Shown: positions 3,477 through 54,742 of the stretch, piece after piece
How positions within the stretch are numbered: the stretch's first letter is position 1
How the letters are laid out: each line of letters opens with the position of its first letter
Translations under genes and position numbers: made by a program
Assembly: GCA_002812745.2 (NCBI GenBank)
Contig: NCSJ02000206.1
Span: forward strand, 1-64,000
Direction: 5' to 3'
Origin: Scytalidium lignicola
Taxonomy: Eukaryota; Ascomycota; Leotiomycetes
DNA length: 64,000 bases
The notes under the pieces: generated by a model
Database searches by the model: none
The model's input: the letters and a program-made list of their open reading frames with translations, nothing else
What the model was told of the DNA's origin: nothing

Positions 3477-6400
3477 CTAAGGCCTCGTCCTTTGCACTTT
3501 CTCCCTTAGGGCCAGCGTCTGGCGGTAGATGGGCTCAGCCTCGTCGTACTTGCCCTGGCTCTCGAGCAGCGCTGCGAGATTGTTCATGCTCAGGGTGCTC
3601 TGAGCCTAGCACTTTCTCGCTCAAGGCCAGCGTCTGGCGGTAGATGGGCTCAGCCTCGTTGGTATTTTGCCCTGGCGTCTTGTAGCGAGTGCTGCGAGAT
3701 TGTTCATGCTGTTGAGTGTGTTAGGGTGCTCTGGGCCTAGCACTTTCTCACTCAGGGCCAGCGTCTGGCGGAAGATGGGCTCAGCCTCGTCGTACTTGCC
3801 CTGGCTGTCGAGCAACATTGCGAGATTGTTCATGCTCATGAGTGTGTTAGGATGCTCTGGGCCTAGCACTTTCTTTCTCAGGGCCAGCGTCTGGCGGTAG
3901 ATGGGCTCGGCCTCGCTATATTTCCCAGAAATATAAAGACAATGTCCAATACTTCTAAGTAGCATATTGTGCGACTCTTCAACTCCGTCTAAGTCCTTAG
4001 TTAAAGCAAATATACTCTGTGCATGAGGTAGATATGCAGTCCATATATTTTTATTGTCATGTTCTGGCCATGGGAAAATATCTGCTATCCGTTTGAGTGT
4101 ATTTGTACTAGCCAAGTGTAGTTCTTTCTTAATATTCAACCAGTTCCGCATTGCTATATGAACCAAGTGATGCATATTGTATATGTTTCCTAAGGGATGT
4201 TCTGTAAGAAACGCAAAACCTTTTAGTATACCAATTGCTTTTACCTGTTCGAGTTTTGAGACTGGTGGTAAAATCGATAAAGGAATATTTTGTTCGTTGA
4301 TGCAAGACATAAACGCCAGATATTCAGCTGCTAAGGAATCTCGTTGCTTTACTTGTTGAAAAGAGATAAGCCATGTTGTTGCTACAGGATTTTTCATTTT
4401 TTTTATATCTCCATTGGTCTCCAAAATTCTCGCTTAAGAGTTCTATCTGATCTTTGTTGCTACTCTCATATATAGAGATATAGGTTGCAATGTTAATTTG
4501 CTTCTCGTTTATAAATGCTGCAGCTTGCTTGATAGCAAGAGGAAGATTGGTGAGGAGCTTAAGCAACATTAATGCACTTTCTGTGTCATTAAGAATGGCT
4601 TTGTTCTGTAGACTGATTCGTAGAAGTTCTTTTGACTCTGCTTCATCCATCATATCTATGGGAATTACCTCCGCTTCTGCATGCTCTGTTGCGACCTTAT
4701 GATCTCGAGTCGTGAAGAGAATTCCTCCGAGTTTGGAGTAAGGGAGATACTCAGCAAGCGAGGACGATGTATCATCGGTTGTCTGAAACAGCTGAGCATC
4801 GTCGGCATTATCGATGATTAGGAGCCATCTTCCTTTTGATTCCTTAGAAAGTTCTTGTTTCACAAGGGTCTTTAAGTCTGCTTTGTCGTCATCAATCGCC
4901 GGGATGCCAAGGGCCTCTCCAATCCTGCGATAAGAATTCTCAAAGCTTGATAAATCACTTGCCTGGACCCAGAAGACACACTGAGCAGGGGATATTTCCT
5001 GGAGTAAGAAAGCAAATTGCAGAGCAATCTGCGTCTTGCCAACTCCGCCTAGGCCGTCTAGCGCTGCACGTTGACATTTCTGTTCAGTGTTATTTGTATG
5101 GAAGATCTTGATTAATCGATCGAGGTGAGACTGGCGGCCAACGAAATTCTCATTTTGACCGAAAGGGAGAATCCTAAGCGGCTTGGACGGATCTTATCAG
5201 AGCTTTAGAGTTAGCTATACCTGAACCGTCTAAGCATAGTTAAATCATTAGAGTGTGAGCTAGAAAAATATCTGCTTTTCACTCATGGGCGGCTTACTTG
5301 ACTGCAGCAGTAATTTACTCATCATATACTCCTACACAGCGTTAATACAGGATAGATCAATAGCGTAATTCCAACTTACATTCACAACGGTAGCAAAGGA
5401 TATCTTAGTTTTATCTGTTAATATCAGCAAAGTGATGCCTTGAATTATTACTCGAACTCGTTACTATTAGTAAGATACACACTCTGTTTGAGATTTAGGT
5501 TCTGAATGCAGTCTCGCACCCGGAACTTCTGTGCCGTGTGGTCGAGGTACCCTCGTGTCGCTCCCTCAATGGCTCCTTTCTTCTTATACTCATCAAGCCC
5601 GATGTCCTGTAACCCTTGCTCGACATTAAAGCGAAAATAGCGCTTCTCGTCAAAATGTTTCGCCCACCTAGCTATAAACTTCTTTTCCGTATTCTCAGTT
5701 TCGGTAGCAATCTGTACCACCGTCTGGCCAAGGAACTGAATTATACTATTTTTAAATGCCTTCTTGCCAGGATTACCTGTACCGATAGAGATGAAGCACT
5801 TGACCAGTGGCTTCAAGTCTCCAGTTTCTGAGCACCAGATATTGGCCGCCTCTCCTTCTACCTCATCTACTGGGTTGTTCGAGCCCAGTGCACCATCGGC
5901 AAATGAGCGATCCCCGATGCTAACAGGATCAAAGAAAGTCGTCGCAGCAGATGTCGCGAGAGCAGCCTGGCATATCGTCGCTCGAATATTTAGTTCGTGA
6001 GGTAAGGTGTAGCTTCGCAGACGGACGATGTCCTTCGTATCGCGATCGACGGTACAAACGAAGCTAATTTCGTTATGACTACGGGTTCTCATATCAGCAG
6101 AATACTTACGTTCTACATCCACGCTCGGTCCCATCATTAAGCAAGTCTGTTTCGGGGACACCGCGATCGACCACCACCTTTCGGATTGCACTCTCTAGTT
6201 TGGCGGAGTCGAACCGTGACTTGACGTTACCCGCCAAGTTGAATGATATAGAACTCTGTCGCTTTCCAAAAACGGCTCCTGCGAGTTCGCTGTATGCAGC
6301 GATGCATTCATCCACGCTCATTTCGAGCCGACCAAGCATGATCGCAATCAATCTGTTTTGATCGCGTTAGTAAACGCTCACAAGAGAATAGCCATGCCTA

Positions 6401-48947: not shown

Positions 48948-51900
48948 ATGGAGTCCGTCCAAATTAACGACAATATCAGCGAGGGCTATCCAGGCGCGGA
49001 GAAGGCCGCTCCAGAAATCCCTCTTGTTCTCGTCCCTTTAACCACAACCAAGAAACCCAAGACCAAAGCACCTCAAGATACAATAGATGAGTTCTGGGCT
49101 AAATTTACCACCAAAACTCCTGGTAAAGGTATGCCATAACTTTTTCAGCCTCCTCTATTTACAATTGCAAGCAAAAAGATAATAACTCATGTCCCTAAGC
49201 CTTCACCATCCTGCCCAAAAATATCTATGCCCAGAAAGCTGGTGAAAAGGTCCCCAAGGGCGACATTGCGGGGCAAAATGCATGCGCGTCTTATGATGAG
49301 GCAGCAGCAATCTGTAAGGCAAAGGTCGAAAAGATCGTGAAAGAATGTCGCCGAGTAAACCAGAAATATCGAGACCCGCATTTCGATATTGAATTTGACC
49401 TGAAATGGGGCAAGAGAGATTGTCTTGTAACTCTTAACCCAGCACCAAAAAAGAATGAAGATGGCGATGATGAAAGTGGATATGAGGATGATGGGTGCAC
49501 CTTTTCGCCAGGATCAGTCAAAAGAGTCGGAGATATTTTCGATAAACCACAATTCTATGTCGCTGGTCCTACATCCGGTGATATCCGCCAGGGCAACGAC
49601 GGAGACTGCTGGTTCCTGGCCGCCTTGACTGCCCTTAGTAATAAGCCTGGCCTCATCGAGCGGGTATGTGTCGCTCGCGATGAAAAAGTCGGNTGTTTAC
49701 GGCTTTGTCTTCCATCGTGATGGTGAGTGGCGGTCCGAAATTATTGATGACAAGCTGTACTTGTCAAAGCAGGACTACGACGAGGGCTTCCTTGAGCGTG
49801 TCCTTATTGAGGACAGACAGAGGATTAACTCCGAGGAGGATTATCGGAAAATATACCAGGTATGCTAATTCTTCATATTTTATCTTTTAAAATAGGGGAC
49901 TAATAGAATGCATAGAGCAACTCTGGGGCCTTATATTTCGCACAATGTTCTGATGAAAATGAAACATGGTATGTTCATGATGTGCAAGGTTGTAGGATTT
50001 ATCTGATAGTTTCATAGGCTACCATTACTGGAAAAGGCATACGCGAAAGCTCATGGTGTAAGCAAATGATGAGATCCAAATAACTGTTCGCGACTACGAG
50101 ATTTGCTAACATTAAAGCAGGATTACTCGGCAATCGAGGGAGGTTTTACAGGTGAAGGCCTAGAAGATTTGACTGGCGGAGTGACTACAGAAGTTTTCAG
50201 CACAGATATCTTAGATAAGGATTACTTTTGGAAGGAAGAACTGCTTAAAGTCAATGATGAGTTCCTCTTTGGATGCGCAACTGGGATATTTGGAGGTTGG
50301 GGTGATCGTAAGGGTATATATGAAGGTCATGCTTACTCAATCATGCGTGCTGTTGAGATTGATGGGCAAAGGCTCTGTTTACTGAGAAATCCCTGGGGAA
50401 TGGGTGAATGGAATGGACCATGGAGTAAGTTTGTGCCTCGGTGATGAGTATTTTAGTCACTAACAACGACTAGGTGATGGAAGTAAAGAGTGGACACCAG
50501 AGTGGATGCAGAAGCTTGATCATCGTTTTGGAAACGATGGGGCGTTCTGGATTTCATATGATGATCTCCTTAAGAAATACCAGACATTCGATCGTACTAG
50601 GCTGTTCTCACCAGAGTGGAAAGTAACCCAGCAGTGGACATGTTTAGAGGTTCCATGGACTGTTGACTACCACAGCACTAAGTTCTCCTTCACTCTTGAG
50701 AAGACTGCACCAGTAATGGTCGTTTTATCACAAGTAAGCATCCTATAGAGACGCTCTAGGCGTGATATTATGCTAATACATACGCACAGTTGGATGGCAG
50801 ATATTTCAAAGGCCTAGAGGGCCAGTATTCTTTCAGACTCTCCTTCCGTATCCATAAAGTAGGCGAAGAAGACTATATTGTCAGAAGCCATGGTAATTAT
50901 TGGATGAGCCGTTCAGTTACAGCTGAGCTCGAGCTAGAGGCTGGCGAGTACCATGTGCTCCTAAAGATCGAAGCGATGCGTAACCAAGATCTCCCAACGG
51001 TTGAGCAGATGGTTCGAGACAATGCCAAAACCAGACGTGATAAGCTTTTGAGAATCGGTCTTGCATATGATCTTGCTCACGCAAAGGGCAAGGTAGTTGA
51101 GACAGAAGAAGAAAAGAAGGGAAAGAAGGCTCTTGAAGCAAAGAAAAAGGAGAAGGAGAGGAAAACAATAAAGGAGAAGTTGATGAAAGAGAAGCAGAAG
51201 AGAAAGCACACTGAGAATAGGGAAAAGCGTAGGCAGTTGAAGGAGAAAGAAAAACGGAAGGCTAAGAAGGCCGCTAAGGCCCAGAAGAAGAAGGAAGAGG
51301 AGATGAATGCTAAGGCTGCAAAGGAAGAAGATAATAAGGCAGAAACAAAGAATGATGGGGTTGAACCCAAAACAGAAGAAAGCCCAGCTAATCCCGAGCA
51401 AGCCATACCGGAGAAGGCAGTCATCAAAGAGGCATCGACCACAACTCCTCAGATTCCAGTAGTAGTTGTATCAGATACCACCTCTGGTAACCAGGCTGGA
51501 GAGACTACTGAAGGCAAAGTTACTGGAAAGGAAACAGGAGCTCCAGAGACGACAACTGAAGAGCCTGCTGAAAAGACTGTGGAGCAATCTCAACCACCAG
51601 CTACGGAGGAGCCGGCACCAGGAGCTGAGGATGGAGTCTCAGAAGAAAGCGACAGCTCCGACGACGACTCTGACATCAACTCGGAAATATCCGACATTAG
51701 CAGCGGCGTAATCGACGACGAGCTCGAAGTCTTGAAATTGGATGCCGAAGCGCAAAACTCAACGCCGCCTGCCAATGATGAGGATCCAGATGAGTTCGAA
51801 CGTGATCCTTGGAACGCGATTATCGTCGTAGGAATGAGGGTGTATAGTAAGAACTCTGATGTTTCTGTGAGGATTGTGAGGCCGAAGACTTGGGGAGATG

Positions 51901-52010
51901 GAGAGTCCGGGCTTGATGTTGATGATTCGGCTGCTGATGCTACCAAGGGGACGGAAGTTGCTAAAGCTGAAGGAAAGGACGAGAGTGAAGGTTCAGAAGT
52001 TTTAGTATAA
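48948..52010 (+). CDS. calpain-family cysteine protease with long charged tail
   Basis: Seven exons: 48948-49128, 49200-49859, 49916-49968, 50018-50057, 50121-50424, 50474-50733 and 50790-52010. The phases close, giving 905 residues, only if the N at 49693 is removed; then ...ARDEKVGVYGFVFHRDGEW reads through. Catalytic residues are all present: Cys in GDCWFLAALTAL (about 196), His in EGHAYSIMRAVEI (about 380) and Asn in LLRNPWGMGEWNGPWS (about 400). A beta-sandwich domain follows (EEDYIVRSHGNYWMSRSVTAE). The last 250 residues are a Lys/Glu-rich helix and an acidic/Ser stretch (SEESDSSDDDSDINSEIS), so the protein is larger than the core. I do not see the MIT domain of PalB/Rim13, so this is a separate calpain. 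It is probably a cytoplasmic calcium- or signal-driven protease; substrates are unknown. Confidence 0.92.
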
Positions 52011-52538
52011 GCTCATAGGATATCGCTCTTCTTGGAACGCCTTGGTAATGCGAAAGTTCACGAGAATGAGGGGTTGAATGTATGTATGTGTATGATCTTA
52101 ATTCACGAACATTTTTGTTAGCTAGCTGTGTGTGGTTTTTGTCTATTTGCTATTGAATATGATATCTACATCAACTAGATAATATGAGATTAGTATCTAA
52201 GCTTCTCGTGATCAGTCCGTTATTCCTATATTTAAATTCCGAACGATGAATGAAATTGGCCGAAATCTAGATTCTAGATTCTTTACTATATCATGGGGGG
52301 GAGGGGGTTTCGCTAGTAACCCTCCTGTTTATACAGCTCCCCCTCTGAACGAGGTTTATCGGTATACAGTCCGAATCGTCTACTTAGAAAAGACTAACCA
52401 TTTATCACTATAATAAGCAAGTAGTCCAGAGCGTGGAAAAGCTAGAGAATGTAGAAATGTACTTAGATTCCAAATCTTGAGCAAGATACTTCAGAAGTGG
52501 CAAACTTTTATCCTTGAAGTCATCTAGGCGCTATACTG
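52011..52538. other. intergenic, left flank of the displaced rDNA fragment
   Basis: No gene is seen. A G-rich run (GGGGGGGAGGGGG) lies near 52284. The boundary with the 28S-like sequence is at 52539, where AGTGTGGCCTATCG begins. Confidence 0.5.
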
Positions 52539-53108
52539 AGTGTGGCCTATCGATCCTTTAGTCCCTCGAAGTTTGAGGCTAGAGGTGCCAGAAAAGTTAC
52601 CACAGGGATGGACCGCGTGTCCAATGCGATGGTCCTCGATGTTTCGAGGTACGATCGCGAAAGGCACCCCCACGTCCCAGGCTATAGCCAACCACTATAG
52701 TCTAGTCCGGCATGTCCTCCATACCACTTGGGCATGTTAAGAGAGACCTGAGAATGGCTCTTTGTAGGGCAACACACCTGGTTGCTGGGAAGCTCTCGTT
52801 AGGTGCATGGTACCAAGGCGAACACCTAACAGGTGTTCGTCAGCGTGGTTACGCAGGTGACAATCCATGTAATAGAGGCAATCAGCAGCAGACCTGGCCA
52901 TACTAGTGAATGTAATTTTTTCACAGGGCTTGGCTGTTCAACGCTCGCTAAGGTGTGGGTTGGAGATGCTCCACGACAGCATCATCTGGCTTAAGGTACG
53001 GGCTACGCCCACCGGAGACGGTGGAGTGTCTACGGGCTGTGGAGCCCAGAAGCACTCGTGAGGTATAACGGAACTGGCTTGTGGCAGCCAAGCGTTCATA
53101 GCGACGTT

Positions 53109-53144
<36 letters not shown>

Positions 53145-53185
53145 ACCGAAGCGGAATTCGGTAAGCGTTGGATTGTTCACCCACT
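52539..53185 (+). pseudogene. partial nuclear 28S rRNA gene fragment, interrupted by a group I intron
   Basis: Bases 52539-52609 (AGTGTGGCCTATCGATCC...CACAGGGAT) and 53072-53185 (AACTGGCTTGTGGCAGCC...TTCACCCACT) match conserved 3' 28S rRNA, as I know it, almost base for base. They correspond to the peptidyl-transferase region. Between them is a complete 462-base group I intron. The fragment starts abruptly and stops at the second intron's 5' splice site. There is no 5' LSU sequence, 5.8S or IGS, so it is an orphan piece, not an rDNA unit. It differs from the usual ascomycete sequence at a few sites by transitions. It is unspliced, so DNA-level transposition or recombination is more likely than an RNA copy. 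Confidence 0.9.
52610..53071 (+). ncRNA. group I intron at LSU position L2449
   Basis: It is inserted exactly between GGGAT and AACTGGC, the E. coli LSU position 2449 site known for fungal nuclear group I introns. The 5' exon ends in T and the intron ends in G (ATAACGG), as required. GTCCC at 52674-52678 can pair with GGGAT to form P1 with the terminal U-G wobble; GGTCCT at 52631 is an alternative. The core segment GGCAACACACCTGGTTGCTGG at about 52768-52788 is shared with the next intron and fits the P4-P6 (P/Q) region. CTTAAGGTACGGGC near 52990 could be the S element. I see no homing endonuclease frame. It should self-splice if transcribed, but nothing shows it is. Confidence 0.8.
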
Positions 53186-53390
53186 GGACGCAGGAGGTAT
53201 TCTACTCGATTACACCAGTCCTGATTTGTTTGTGAGAAGGCTACGGCCAAATGTAATCTTTTGAGTTTCTTCTTGGTGGGGATAGTCGGGTTCCCGAGTT
53301 CATAGGCGGGAATTATGCCGGCTAGTCATATAGTATCACGTCTGCAGGGGCTATATGGCAACACAACCTGGTTCGGGGAAGGCTGTAGCG
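53186..53390 (+). ncRNA. truncated group I intron at LSU position L2563
   Basis: Inserted after CACCCACT, the L2563 site. An internal guide GGTGGG at 53275-53280 pairs fully with the six-base exon end CCCACU, with the terminal U-G. The P/Q core GGCAACACAACCTGGTTCGGGG at about 53357-53378 matches the upstream intron. The 3' core and the downstream exon (AATAGGGAACGTG) are absent, so the insert ends within the core near 53390. It cannot splice. Confidence 0.7.
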
Positions 53391-53698
53391 GACTTTTCTA
53401 TAAAGTTTCGTTAGCAATATTCAAAAATTAATATCAGGCAACAGGGGAGATAATGACGTTATTGTCTCTTTGGTCACCCGAAATCCCAGATATATTGCCC
53501 GTTCTGGAAAATGGCTTGCATTTCGGATTACAAACCCACCTAAGCACATCATTATCCTAATGCGGGGCAAAGCCGCCCTTCCGTCAACCAGAGCACATGC
53601 TAATTATATAAAACATACAGCTCACTCTTAACCTAAATACAATAGTTAAAGGGTTTCATAAACACATAATTCACTAAAAGGACTTCAAAGGACTAGCA
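53391..53698. other. right flank of the rDNA fragment and upstream of the DUF427 gene
   Basis: The sequence becomes AT-rich directly after the broken intron. I find no rRNA sequence here and no gene. It lies just before the ATG at 53699. Confidence 0.45.
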
Positions 53699-54596
53699 AT
53701 GGCAGAGTTAGTCGTCAATTCTAAAGTGGAGTGAATATAATCTAATCACTTTTAGTCTTAAAACTCTAGCAAATACACTGGTATCTAACGGCCCTGTCAA
53801 ACTCGAAATCACCCCACGCCGTGTGAGAGGTCTCTTGGATGGTGTCTGGTTGTTTGACACTATTGAAGCTCGTCATGTGTGGGAACACAAATATTTCCCT
53901 CAGTTTTGGGTGCCTTTAAAGTCTGTTACTGAAGGAGTATTAACCAAAGGCGATGCCTTTGACTCAGATAAAAGTGCATTTATAGCCACAGCAAAGGGCC
54001 AGGAGAAATTCACATCACGTGTAATGATCTTCGAGAAAGGACCTCTTGCGGGTCTTGTTCGATTTGAATTCAAGTCTCTAGGTAAGATAGAGTTTCTAAT
54101 TTTCCTCTTACCTTTAACAGTTTCTGACGTTTCATAGATGCTTGGTTTGAAGAAGATCAACAAATATATGATCATCCCAAGAACCCATATACCCGTATTG
54201 ACATATTACCTTCGTCGAGAAAAATCACGGTAAAGGTCGGGGGCGTTCAAATAGCTGAGAGCTCAAGCTCGATGTTTCTTTTTGAGACAGGATTAAGGAC
54301 TAGATATTACCTCCCAAAGACATCGGTAAATGAGAAAGTAATCTAATTTTGATGCTGTATTTCTGACATTAACATAGGTTCAATGGAAGTACTTGACCAA
54401 GAGCGACACAACTTCAAAGTGTCCATACAAAGGCCTTGCTCAGTACTATAACATCGTGATCGATGGAAAAGAATACAAGGATACTATTTGGTGGTACGAG
54501 TATCCTATTACGGAGTCCGCTGCTGTTGCTGGACATGTTTCTTTCTATAATGAGAAAGTGGACATTTACGTTGATGGGGTCTTAGAAGAAAAGTAA
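53699..54596 (+). CDS. double-DUF427-domain protein
   Basis: Exons 53756-54081, 54138-54325 and 54378-54596 join cleanly (phases 1 and 0) and encode two DUF427 copies. Copy 1 contains RVRGLLDGVWLFDTIEARHV and WEHKYFPQFWVPL. Copy 2 contains ITVKVGGVQIAESSSSMFLF, TRYYLPKTSVQWKYL and DTIWWYEYPI. Repeats of this kind occur in fungal homologues. Members of DUF427 are small beta-fold domains of unknown activity. The first exon is unclear: ATGGCAGAGTTA at 53699 looks like the expected start, and the TTTTAG acceptor before 53756 is good, but the donor GTCGTC would give the wrong phase by one base. An indel error or a broken start is possible. The gene sits among accessory genes. Confidence 0.75.
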
Positions 54597-54742
54597 ATCA
54601 GTTCCAAGTGATGAAATATATTATGATTGGTAACTTGTGATACAGAGTGTTGCCTGTCTTGACAAAATTATGAAATTGTTACGAAGACAAATATCTTCAC
54701 TATTGTTAGTTCAGTGTTGGGCATTATTCTCTTCTATTATAG

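What the first reader, a model, noticed from the sequence alone, without database searches (positions are those of the whole stretch)
52539..53390. Displaced 28S rDNA fragment carrying two group I introns at non-rDNA locus
A short piece of conserved 28S rRNA sits between a calpain gene and a DUF427 gene. It starts in mid-gene and ends inside a second intron. Unspliced introns mean the copy moved as DNA. This could be an ectopic rDNA insertion, a repair patch at a double-strand break, or a mobile-intron by-product. It is not explained by the neighbouring genes.
Basis: partly seen in the sequence, partly recalled or inferred. Interest (0 to 1): 0.8.

Follow-up and report, generated by a model that had tools for sequence, protein, structure and literature searches.

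The report
Stray ribosomal-gene fragment with two introns
In this fungal genome a broken-off piece of a ribosomal RNA gene, still carrying one complete and one cut-off self-splicing-type intron, sits between two ordinary genes; it looks like a real but inert stray copy, one of a dozen or so such scraps, and is mainly of use as a fossil of past ribosomal introns.

Summary
Window 52539-52609 and 53072-53185 are adjoining stretches of nuclear 28S rRNA gene, split by a complete 462-nt group I-type insert at the L2449 site (52610-53071) and followed by the 5' half of a second one at L2563 (53186 to about 53400). Three window proteins match Scytalidium lignicola, whose assembly comes from about 200-base Ion Torrent reads. 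My queries found no rDNA unit on the contig or in the assembly. The flanks match nothing else in the genome, and calpain and DUF427, the genes on either side, lie on one contig in the two closest relatives listed, so a misjoin is unlikely. The fragment is not alone: generic rRNA queries found 14 loci (this one included) with 18S, 5.8S or 28S pieces, and one more has intron sequence only; a reversed query found none. One locus repeats the 28S/L2563 boundary fused to the 28S 3' end; another has an L1921 intron. Best reading: broken rDNA captured as DNA by end-joining repair, an inert pseudogene fragment. rRNA pseudogenes of filamentous ascomycetes are published; short, not RIP-mutated, intron-bearing scraps are a modest addition. 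Open: exact right junction, target duplication, introns of the living rDNA.

The parts
52539..52609 (+). 28S rRNA gene piece ending at GGGAT (5' side of site L2449); left breakpoint of the fragment at 52539/52540
   Evidence: 70 of 71 identical to typed generic 28S
52610..53071 (+). Complete group I-type intron at L2449, 462 nt
   Evidence: Guide GTCCC (52674-52678) pairs with exon GGGAT in the predicted fold; fold z -5.06, 0 of 100 shuffles as stable; R- and S-like motifs with P7 pairing GCTCG/CGGGC at the same offsets as in the Rfam-recognised C114 intron. Against: no RF00028 match
53072..53185 (+). 28S rRNA gene piece from AACTGG to CACCCACT (up to site L2563)
   Evidence: 110 of 114 identical to typed generic 28S; RF02543 108.7 bits
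53186..53400 (+). 5' half of a group I-type intron at L2563; right end approximate (about 53390-53420)
   Evidence: Guide GGTGGG (53275-53280) matches exon CCCACT; 28-nt stretch 75% alike to intron 1; first 27 nt shared with C566; no Q-, R- or S-like motif before 53420
48948..52009 (+). Calpain gene on the left (coding start by my reading of the exons)
   Evidence: PF00648 E 2.1e-11 on one exon; matches B7463_g8897
53699..54598 (+). DUF427 gene on the right, start codon about 300 bases downstream of the fragment
   Evidence: PF04248 E 1.3e-37 in the database protein P0121, identical to the window gene over 96% of my reading

Best explanation
An inert, DNA-derived rRNA pseudogene fragment. A piece of about 0.86 kb of broken nuclear rDNA, from inside 28S to inside an L2563 intron and including a whole L2449 intron, was captured at a chromosome break between the calpain and DUF427 genes and sealed in by end joining. 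The introns came along as passengers. Shown: the anatomy of the fragment, flanks that match nothing else, no rDNA unit found nearby, sister fragments elsewhere, one of which joins two non-neighbouring 28S parts. Inferred: that it moved as DNA, that the event was break repair, and that the copy has no function.
For: Mid-gene left end and mid-intron right end, no relation to gene or intron borders. Flanks 51990-53800 match nothing else in the genome except the 82 bases shared with C566, which lie inside the fragment. Thirteen further loci with rRNA pieces plus one intron-only locus. C566:123174-123309 carries the same exon/L2563-intron boundary (81 of 82 bases) fused to the 28S 3' end with a 2-base overlap at the joint, as expected of ligated scraps. 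Unspliced introns at L2449 and L2563 here, L1921 in C114, and an intron-only scrap in C116.
Against: No empty site, target duplication or microhomology could be tested for this locus, so the repair step is inference. At other loci transposons are next to the rDNA pieces, so capture by a transposon is a real alternative in this genome. The own rDNA (MG815782) could not be compared.
Confidence: 0.7

Rival explanations
1. A transposon (Helitron or inverted-repeat element) picked up the 28S piece and dropped it here, then decayed or was lost.
For: In this genome 28S is joined to a Helitron at C378 and C188 (PF14214, E 7.8e-54) and the C114 28S/L1921 piece lies between 183-base inverted repeats, 95.6% alike.
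Against: At the window locus the flanks 51990-53800 match nothing else in the genome and no repeats bracket the fragment in 51500-54500.
Confidence: 0.1
2. Assembly chimera: rDNA reads were wrongly joined into a gene region by the short-read assembly.
For: Ion Torrent reads of 140-260 bases and the MIRA assembler (PMC6256649); three other rRNA pieces sit at contig starts, and C155 has N at its junction.
Against: Two junctions would both have to be false, and the region has no N between 52500 and 53460; calpain and DUF427 lie on one contig in Xylogone and Chlorociboria; the window exon has a base at a conserved 28S position (G where C566 and the Rfam consensus have A) that array reads should not supply.
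Confidence: 0.08
3. RNA route: an unspliced piece of precursor rRNA was reverse-transcribed and inserted.
For: Precursor rRNA with introns exists before splicing (general knowledge).
Against: Introns are retained in every scrap found here that covers L1921, L2449 or L2563 (window, C114, C566-123 kb); no poly-A tract follows the fragment.
Confidence: 0.07
4. By-product of intron mobility (homing or reverse splicing).
For: Group I introns spread by homing and, as proposed, by reverse splicing (PMC1299323, seen only as a search listing with the start of its abstract).
Against: Both breakpoints lie away from intron ends: the left one 71 nt upstream of the L2449 intron, the right one inside the L2563 intron. 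No stop-to-stop ORF of 150 aa or more overlaps the fragment.
Confidence: 0.02

Closest known systems
45S rRNA pseudogenes of filamentous ascomycetes (Li et al. 2017, PMC5555474; outline with abstract, sections 11 and 21, and passages seen)
   Same: Non-functional rDNA copies persisting in ascomycete genomes, many partial (96 of 211 there), while functional units are poorly represented in short-read assemblies.
   Different: Those are 45S repeats, complete or partial, ascribed to RIP mutation; this one is a short piece without RIP-type changes in its exons, with unspliced introns at a known gene interval. Their one passage with 'intron' says introns were removed for alignment.
Group I introns at L1921, L2449 and L2563 of fungal 28S rDNA (L1921 and L2563: PMC3112068, passages; L2449 recalled)
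   Same: Same insertion sites; guide pairing with the 5' exon; P7 pairing between R- and S-like motifs in intron 1.
   Different: Here they lie in a displaced gene fragment; the L2563 one is cut off; RF00028 recognises neither.
NUMT-like capture of DNA scraps by end joining (general knowledge; not looked up here beyond a search listing)
   Same: Scraps of abundant DNA at scattered sites, one of them chimeric.
   Different: Source is nuclear rDNA; junction signatures could not be tested.

Membership tests
Dispersed rRNA pseudogene fragment | Clear similarity to an rRNA gene | tested here: met
   70 of 71 and 110 of 114 identical; RF02543 108.7 bits
Dispersed rRNA pseudogene fragment | Incomplete, unable to give the rRNA | tested here: met
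   Only 185 exon bases of 28S; nothing of 28S on either side
Dispersed rRNA pseudogene fragment | Lies outside the rDNA array | tested here: met
   Between calpain and DUF427; no other rDNA match on C118; counts are lower bounds
RIP-mutated rRNA pseudogene as in Li et al. 2017 | C>T and G>A changes against functional rDNA | tested here: not met
   All 5 exon differences from the typed 28S are A>G or T>C; indices of the whole piece are borderline; own rDNA not available
Group I intron (first insert, L2449) | Guide sequence pairing with the 5' exon, U.G at the splice site; last base G | tested here: met
   GGGAU with GUCCC in the predicted fold; intron ends in G
Group I intron (first insert, L2449) | Catalytic core with P7 between R and S motifs | tested here: met
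   GCTCG/CGGGC at the offsets at which the C114 intron has GACTA/TAGTC; 3 of 5 pairs differ on both sides
Group I intron (first insert, L2449) | P3 and P4 helices of the core | tested here: inconclusive
   Present, but a descriptor of this kind hit 68 of 100 shuffles
Group I intron (first insert, L2449) | Match to Rfam RF00028 | tested here: not met
   No match at E up to 10, while the C114 intron scores 86.3 bits. RF00028 is a detector, not a definition
Group I intron (first insert, L2449) | Self-splicing | not testable with these tools
   Needs transcription and a splicing assay
Group I intron (second insert, L2563) | Guide sequence pairing with the 5' exon | tested here: inconclusive
   GGTGGG at 53275 is complementary to CCCACT, but the predicted fold of the fragment does not form it and is no more stable than shuffles (z -0.65)
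Group I intron (second insert, L2563) | Complete catalytic core | tested here: not met
   No Q-, R- or S-like motif between 53186 and 53420; the 3' half is missing
Transposon-carried fragment | Repeated flanks or terminal repeats around the fragment | tested here: not met
   Flanks match nothing else; no bracketing repeats
End-joining capture | No target duplication, microhomology or small deletion at the junctions | tested here: inconclusive
   Right end not fixed and no empty site available

The most novel reading that the evidence does not exclude
The stray pieces are an accidental fossil record of rDNA introns. Because they escape the homogenisation of the array, they preserve the L1921, L2449 and L2563 introns of this lineage as they stood when each scrap broke off, so intron gain and loss could be dated locus by locus. 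The L2449 intron here, complete and with both exons, might even still splice from a read-through transcript upstream of the DUF427 gene.
Probability: 0.25. Interest if true: 0.45.

Novelty: new member of a known kind. Interest (0 to 1): 0.3.

Why it matters
It shows that, besides RIP-mutated repeats, short scraps of rDNA with unspliced introns and no RIP-type changes lie scattered in an ascomycete genome. They can mislead intron surveys, barcoding and assembly checks, and could serve as snapshots of rDNA intron content that the array itself erases by concerted evolution. For most specialists it is a tidy example, not a surprise.

Tried and rejected
Rfam at gathering threshold on the whole window found nothing, and RF00028 did not see either window intron at E up to 10; the introns rest on site, guide pairing and, for the first, P7. 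A home-made P3/P4/P7 descriptor was too loose (68 of 100 shuffles hit it), so P3 and P4 are not used as evidence. RIP indices of the fragment are borderline (TpA/ApT 1.06, the other 1.05, where the exon/intron borders I used were 3-5 nt off) and decide nothing. An alignment of intron 1 with intron 2 gave no trustworthy right end.

Not possible: comparison with the strain's own rDNA (no unit found in the assembly, MG815782 not held); an empty site (no DNA of relatives available); microhomology at the junctions. Mobile-intron by-product was rejected on the breakpoints. Paper searches. None of the titles listed describes group I introns in stray nuclear rDNA fragments, but lists were cut and only five papers were opened: PMC6256649 (whole text), PMC5555474, PMC3112068, PMC12541464 and PMC11687029 (parts or passages).

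Full report
What is there. Rfam's LSU model gives the second piece 108.7 bits, E 1.7e-26. The two pieces are adjacent in 28S. Between them lie 462 bases (52610-53071) inserted after GGGAT and before AACTGG, the L2449 position; a further insert begins at 53186 directly after CACCCACT, the L2563 position. (The site numbers are my own count along the E. coli sequence, recalled; they come from no call.) Nothing of 28S is found to the left of 52539 or after the second insert.

The introns. The first insert behaves as a group I intron. Its fold is far more stable than shuffles (z -5.06, 0 of 100 as stable) and forms the expected pairing of exon GGGAU with a guide GUCCC. It has the R-like motif GTTCAACG and the S-like CTTAAGGTA, each once on the + strand of the window, and the five bases at fixed offsets from them pair (GCTCG/CGGGC). 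In the C114 intron, which Rfam does recognise as group I (86.3 bits), the same offsets give GACTA/TAGTC: 3 of 5 pairs differ on both sides and still pair. Allowing one mismatch per motif, the window holds 2 such motif pairs over both strands, and only the intron's forms the helix. Against this, RF00028 does not find the window intron at E up to 10, and a loose P3/P4/P7 descriptor was uninformative. The second insert has GGTGGG (53275-53280), complementary to exon CCCACT, and a 28-base stretch 75% alike to intron 1, but no Q-, R- or S-like motif before 53420. Its predicted fold does not show the guide pairing and is unremarkable (z -0.65, 51 of 200 shuffles as stable). I read it as the 5' half of an L2563 intron, cut off at about 53390-53420. 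L2563 and L1921 group I introns are known from Phialophora (PMC3112068, passages).

Where it is. The window is contig C118 (76,867 bases) of an assembly of 46,851,938 bases in 664 contigs. Three window proteins match B7463_g8892, g8897 and g8898 of Scytalidium lignicola, each on a contig of 76,867 bases. The genome note (PMC6256649, whole text) describes strain DSM 105466: Ion Torrent reads filtered to 140-260 bases, MIRA assembly, ribosomal cistron filed apart as MG815782; it gives 47.7 Mb in 826 contigs, more than is held here. A later paper (PMC12541464, one passage) says the strain's ITS differs by 10.1% from the type of S. lignicola, so the species name may be wrong. The fragment lies between a calpain gene (PF00648) and a DUF427 gene (PF04248).

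Do the flanks belong together? Four other species appear in both the calpain and the DUF427 list (best 120 each). In the two with the closest hits the contig lengths are equal: Xylogone sp. PMI_703 (6,927,901) and Chlorociboria aeruginascens (124,706; g3844 and g3840). In Clarireedia jacksonii and Candelaria pacifica, with DUF427 hits of 48% and 53% identity, they differ. For GIP3, a gene further left, against DUF427, lengths agree in Xylogone and Oculimacula yallundae, and for a hit whose organism is cut off and Phialocephala subalpina; they differ in Clarireedia and Caeruleum heppii; in Lachnellula suecica the GIP3 hit is a partial protein on a 2,346-base contig and says nothing. Equal length is only a proxy for the same contig: an unrelated Haloplaca hit also shows 76,867. 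Taken together, the linkage makes a misjoin unlikely but does not exclude it.

Not alone. Searching the assembly with typed 18S, 5.8S and 28S found no intact unit, but 14 loci, this one included, with rRNA pieces of 39 to 508 aligned bases: C118, C114, C566 (two loci), C543, C221, C378, C188, C365, C155, C24, C321, C225 and C110. A fifteenth, C116, has 62 bases of the L1921 intron alone. Three of the 14 (C543, C188, C155) begin at a contig start, and C155 has N at its junction, so they may be assembly ends. C378 and C188 share one junction and count as one event. C543, C221, C321, C225 and C110 are only 77-86% identical to my query: old, or in variable regions. A letter-reversed 28S half found 0 matches, the true one 8. 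The tool says its counts are lower bounds and that very common words are skipped, so absence of the array from the assembly is likely, not certain.

Clues to mechanism. C566:123228-123309 repeats window 53131-53212 at 81 of 82 bases, including the first 27 bases of the L2563 intron, and runs with a 2-base overlap into the last 56 bases of 28S. Two scraps thus carry the same exon/intron boundary, and one joins two non-neighbouring rDNA parts (or lost what lay between). Introns retained at three sites favour DNA as the source, though unspliced precursor RNA is not excluded. The window flanks 51990-53800 match nothing else in the genome. Elsewhere transposons are involved: C378 and C188 join 28S to a Helitron (PF14214, E 7.8e-54), and the two copies differ almost purely by C>T and G>A, the RIP pattern; the C114 piece lies between 183-base inverted repeats. 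In the window exons all 5 differences from my query are A>G or T>C, so they show no RIP although the genome does.

Verdict. The most likely history is capture of a broken rDNA fragment at a chromosomal break by end joining, leaving an inert piece. rRNA pseudogenes of filamentous ascomycetes are published (PMC5555474; outline with abstract, sections 11 and 21, and passages): 211 rDNA copies, functional ones included, from nine assemblies, with RIP named as the probable cause of the pseudogenes. This is a further member of that kind, differing in being short, free of RIP-type exon changes, and intron-bearing. The most that could be made of it is a record of past rDNA introns.

Noticed in passing
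G000:C566:47821-53296 (L037:1322-6797): An 18S piece (typed positions 1040-1374) is split by a 5.1-kb insert with 31-base inverted repeats near its ends, holding reading frames with HET, NACHT-like and WD40 domains, as in fungal NLR-type incompatibility genes.
   Followed up: partly
G000:C378:16285-19500 and C188:1-2887 (L038, L039): A 28S piece joined to a Helitron at the same base in two contigs; the copies differ almost only by C>T and G>A, with identity falling from 1.0 in 28S to about 0.75 over some 900 bases, a RIP gradient. C365, with a 39-base 5.8S piece, carries related sequence.
   Followed up: partly
G000:C114:47819-51885 (L036:820-4886): A 28S piece with a 527-nt L1921 group I intron lies between 183-base inverted repeats (95.6% alike), as if inside a 4-kb transposon.
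   Followed up: partly
G000:C116:11127-11188 (L034:1628-1689): 62 bases of the L1921 intron core alone, 92% alike, without rRNA exon sequence in the search.
   Followed up: partly
window 49693: A single N in a calpain exon that shifts the reading frame, probably an Ion Torrent base-calling error.
   Followed up: no
window 3494-3915: Imperfect tandem repeat, parts 85-92% alike.
   Followed up: no
G000:C566:46620-46715 (L037:121-216): Match to the snoRNA family snR69 (RF00475, 55.1 bits against a gathering score of 50).
   Followed up: no
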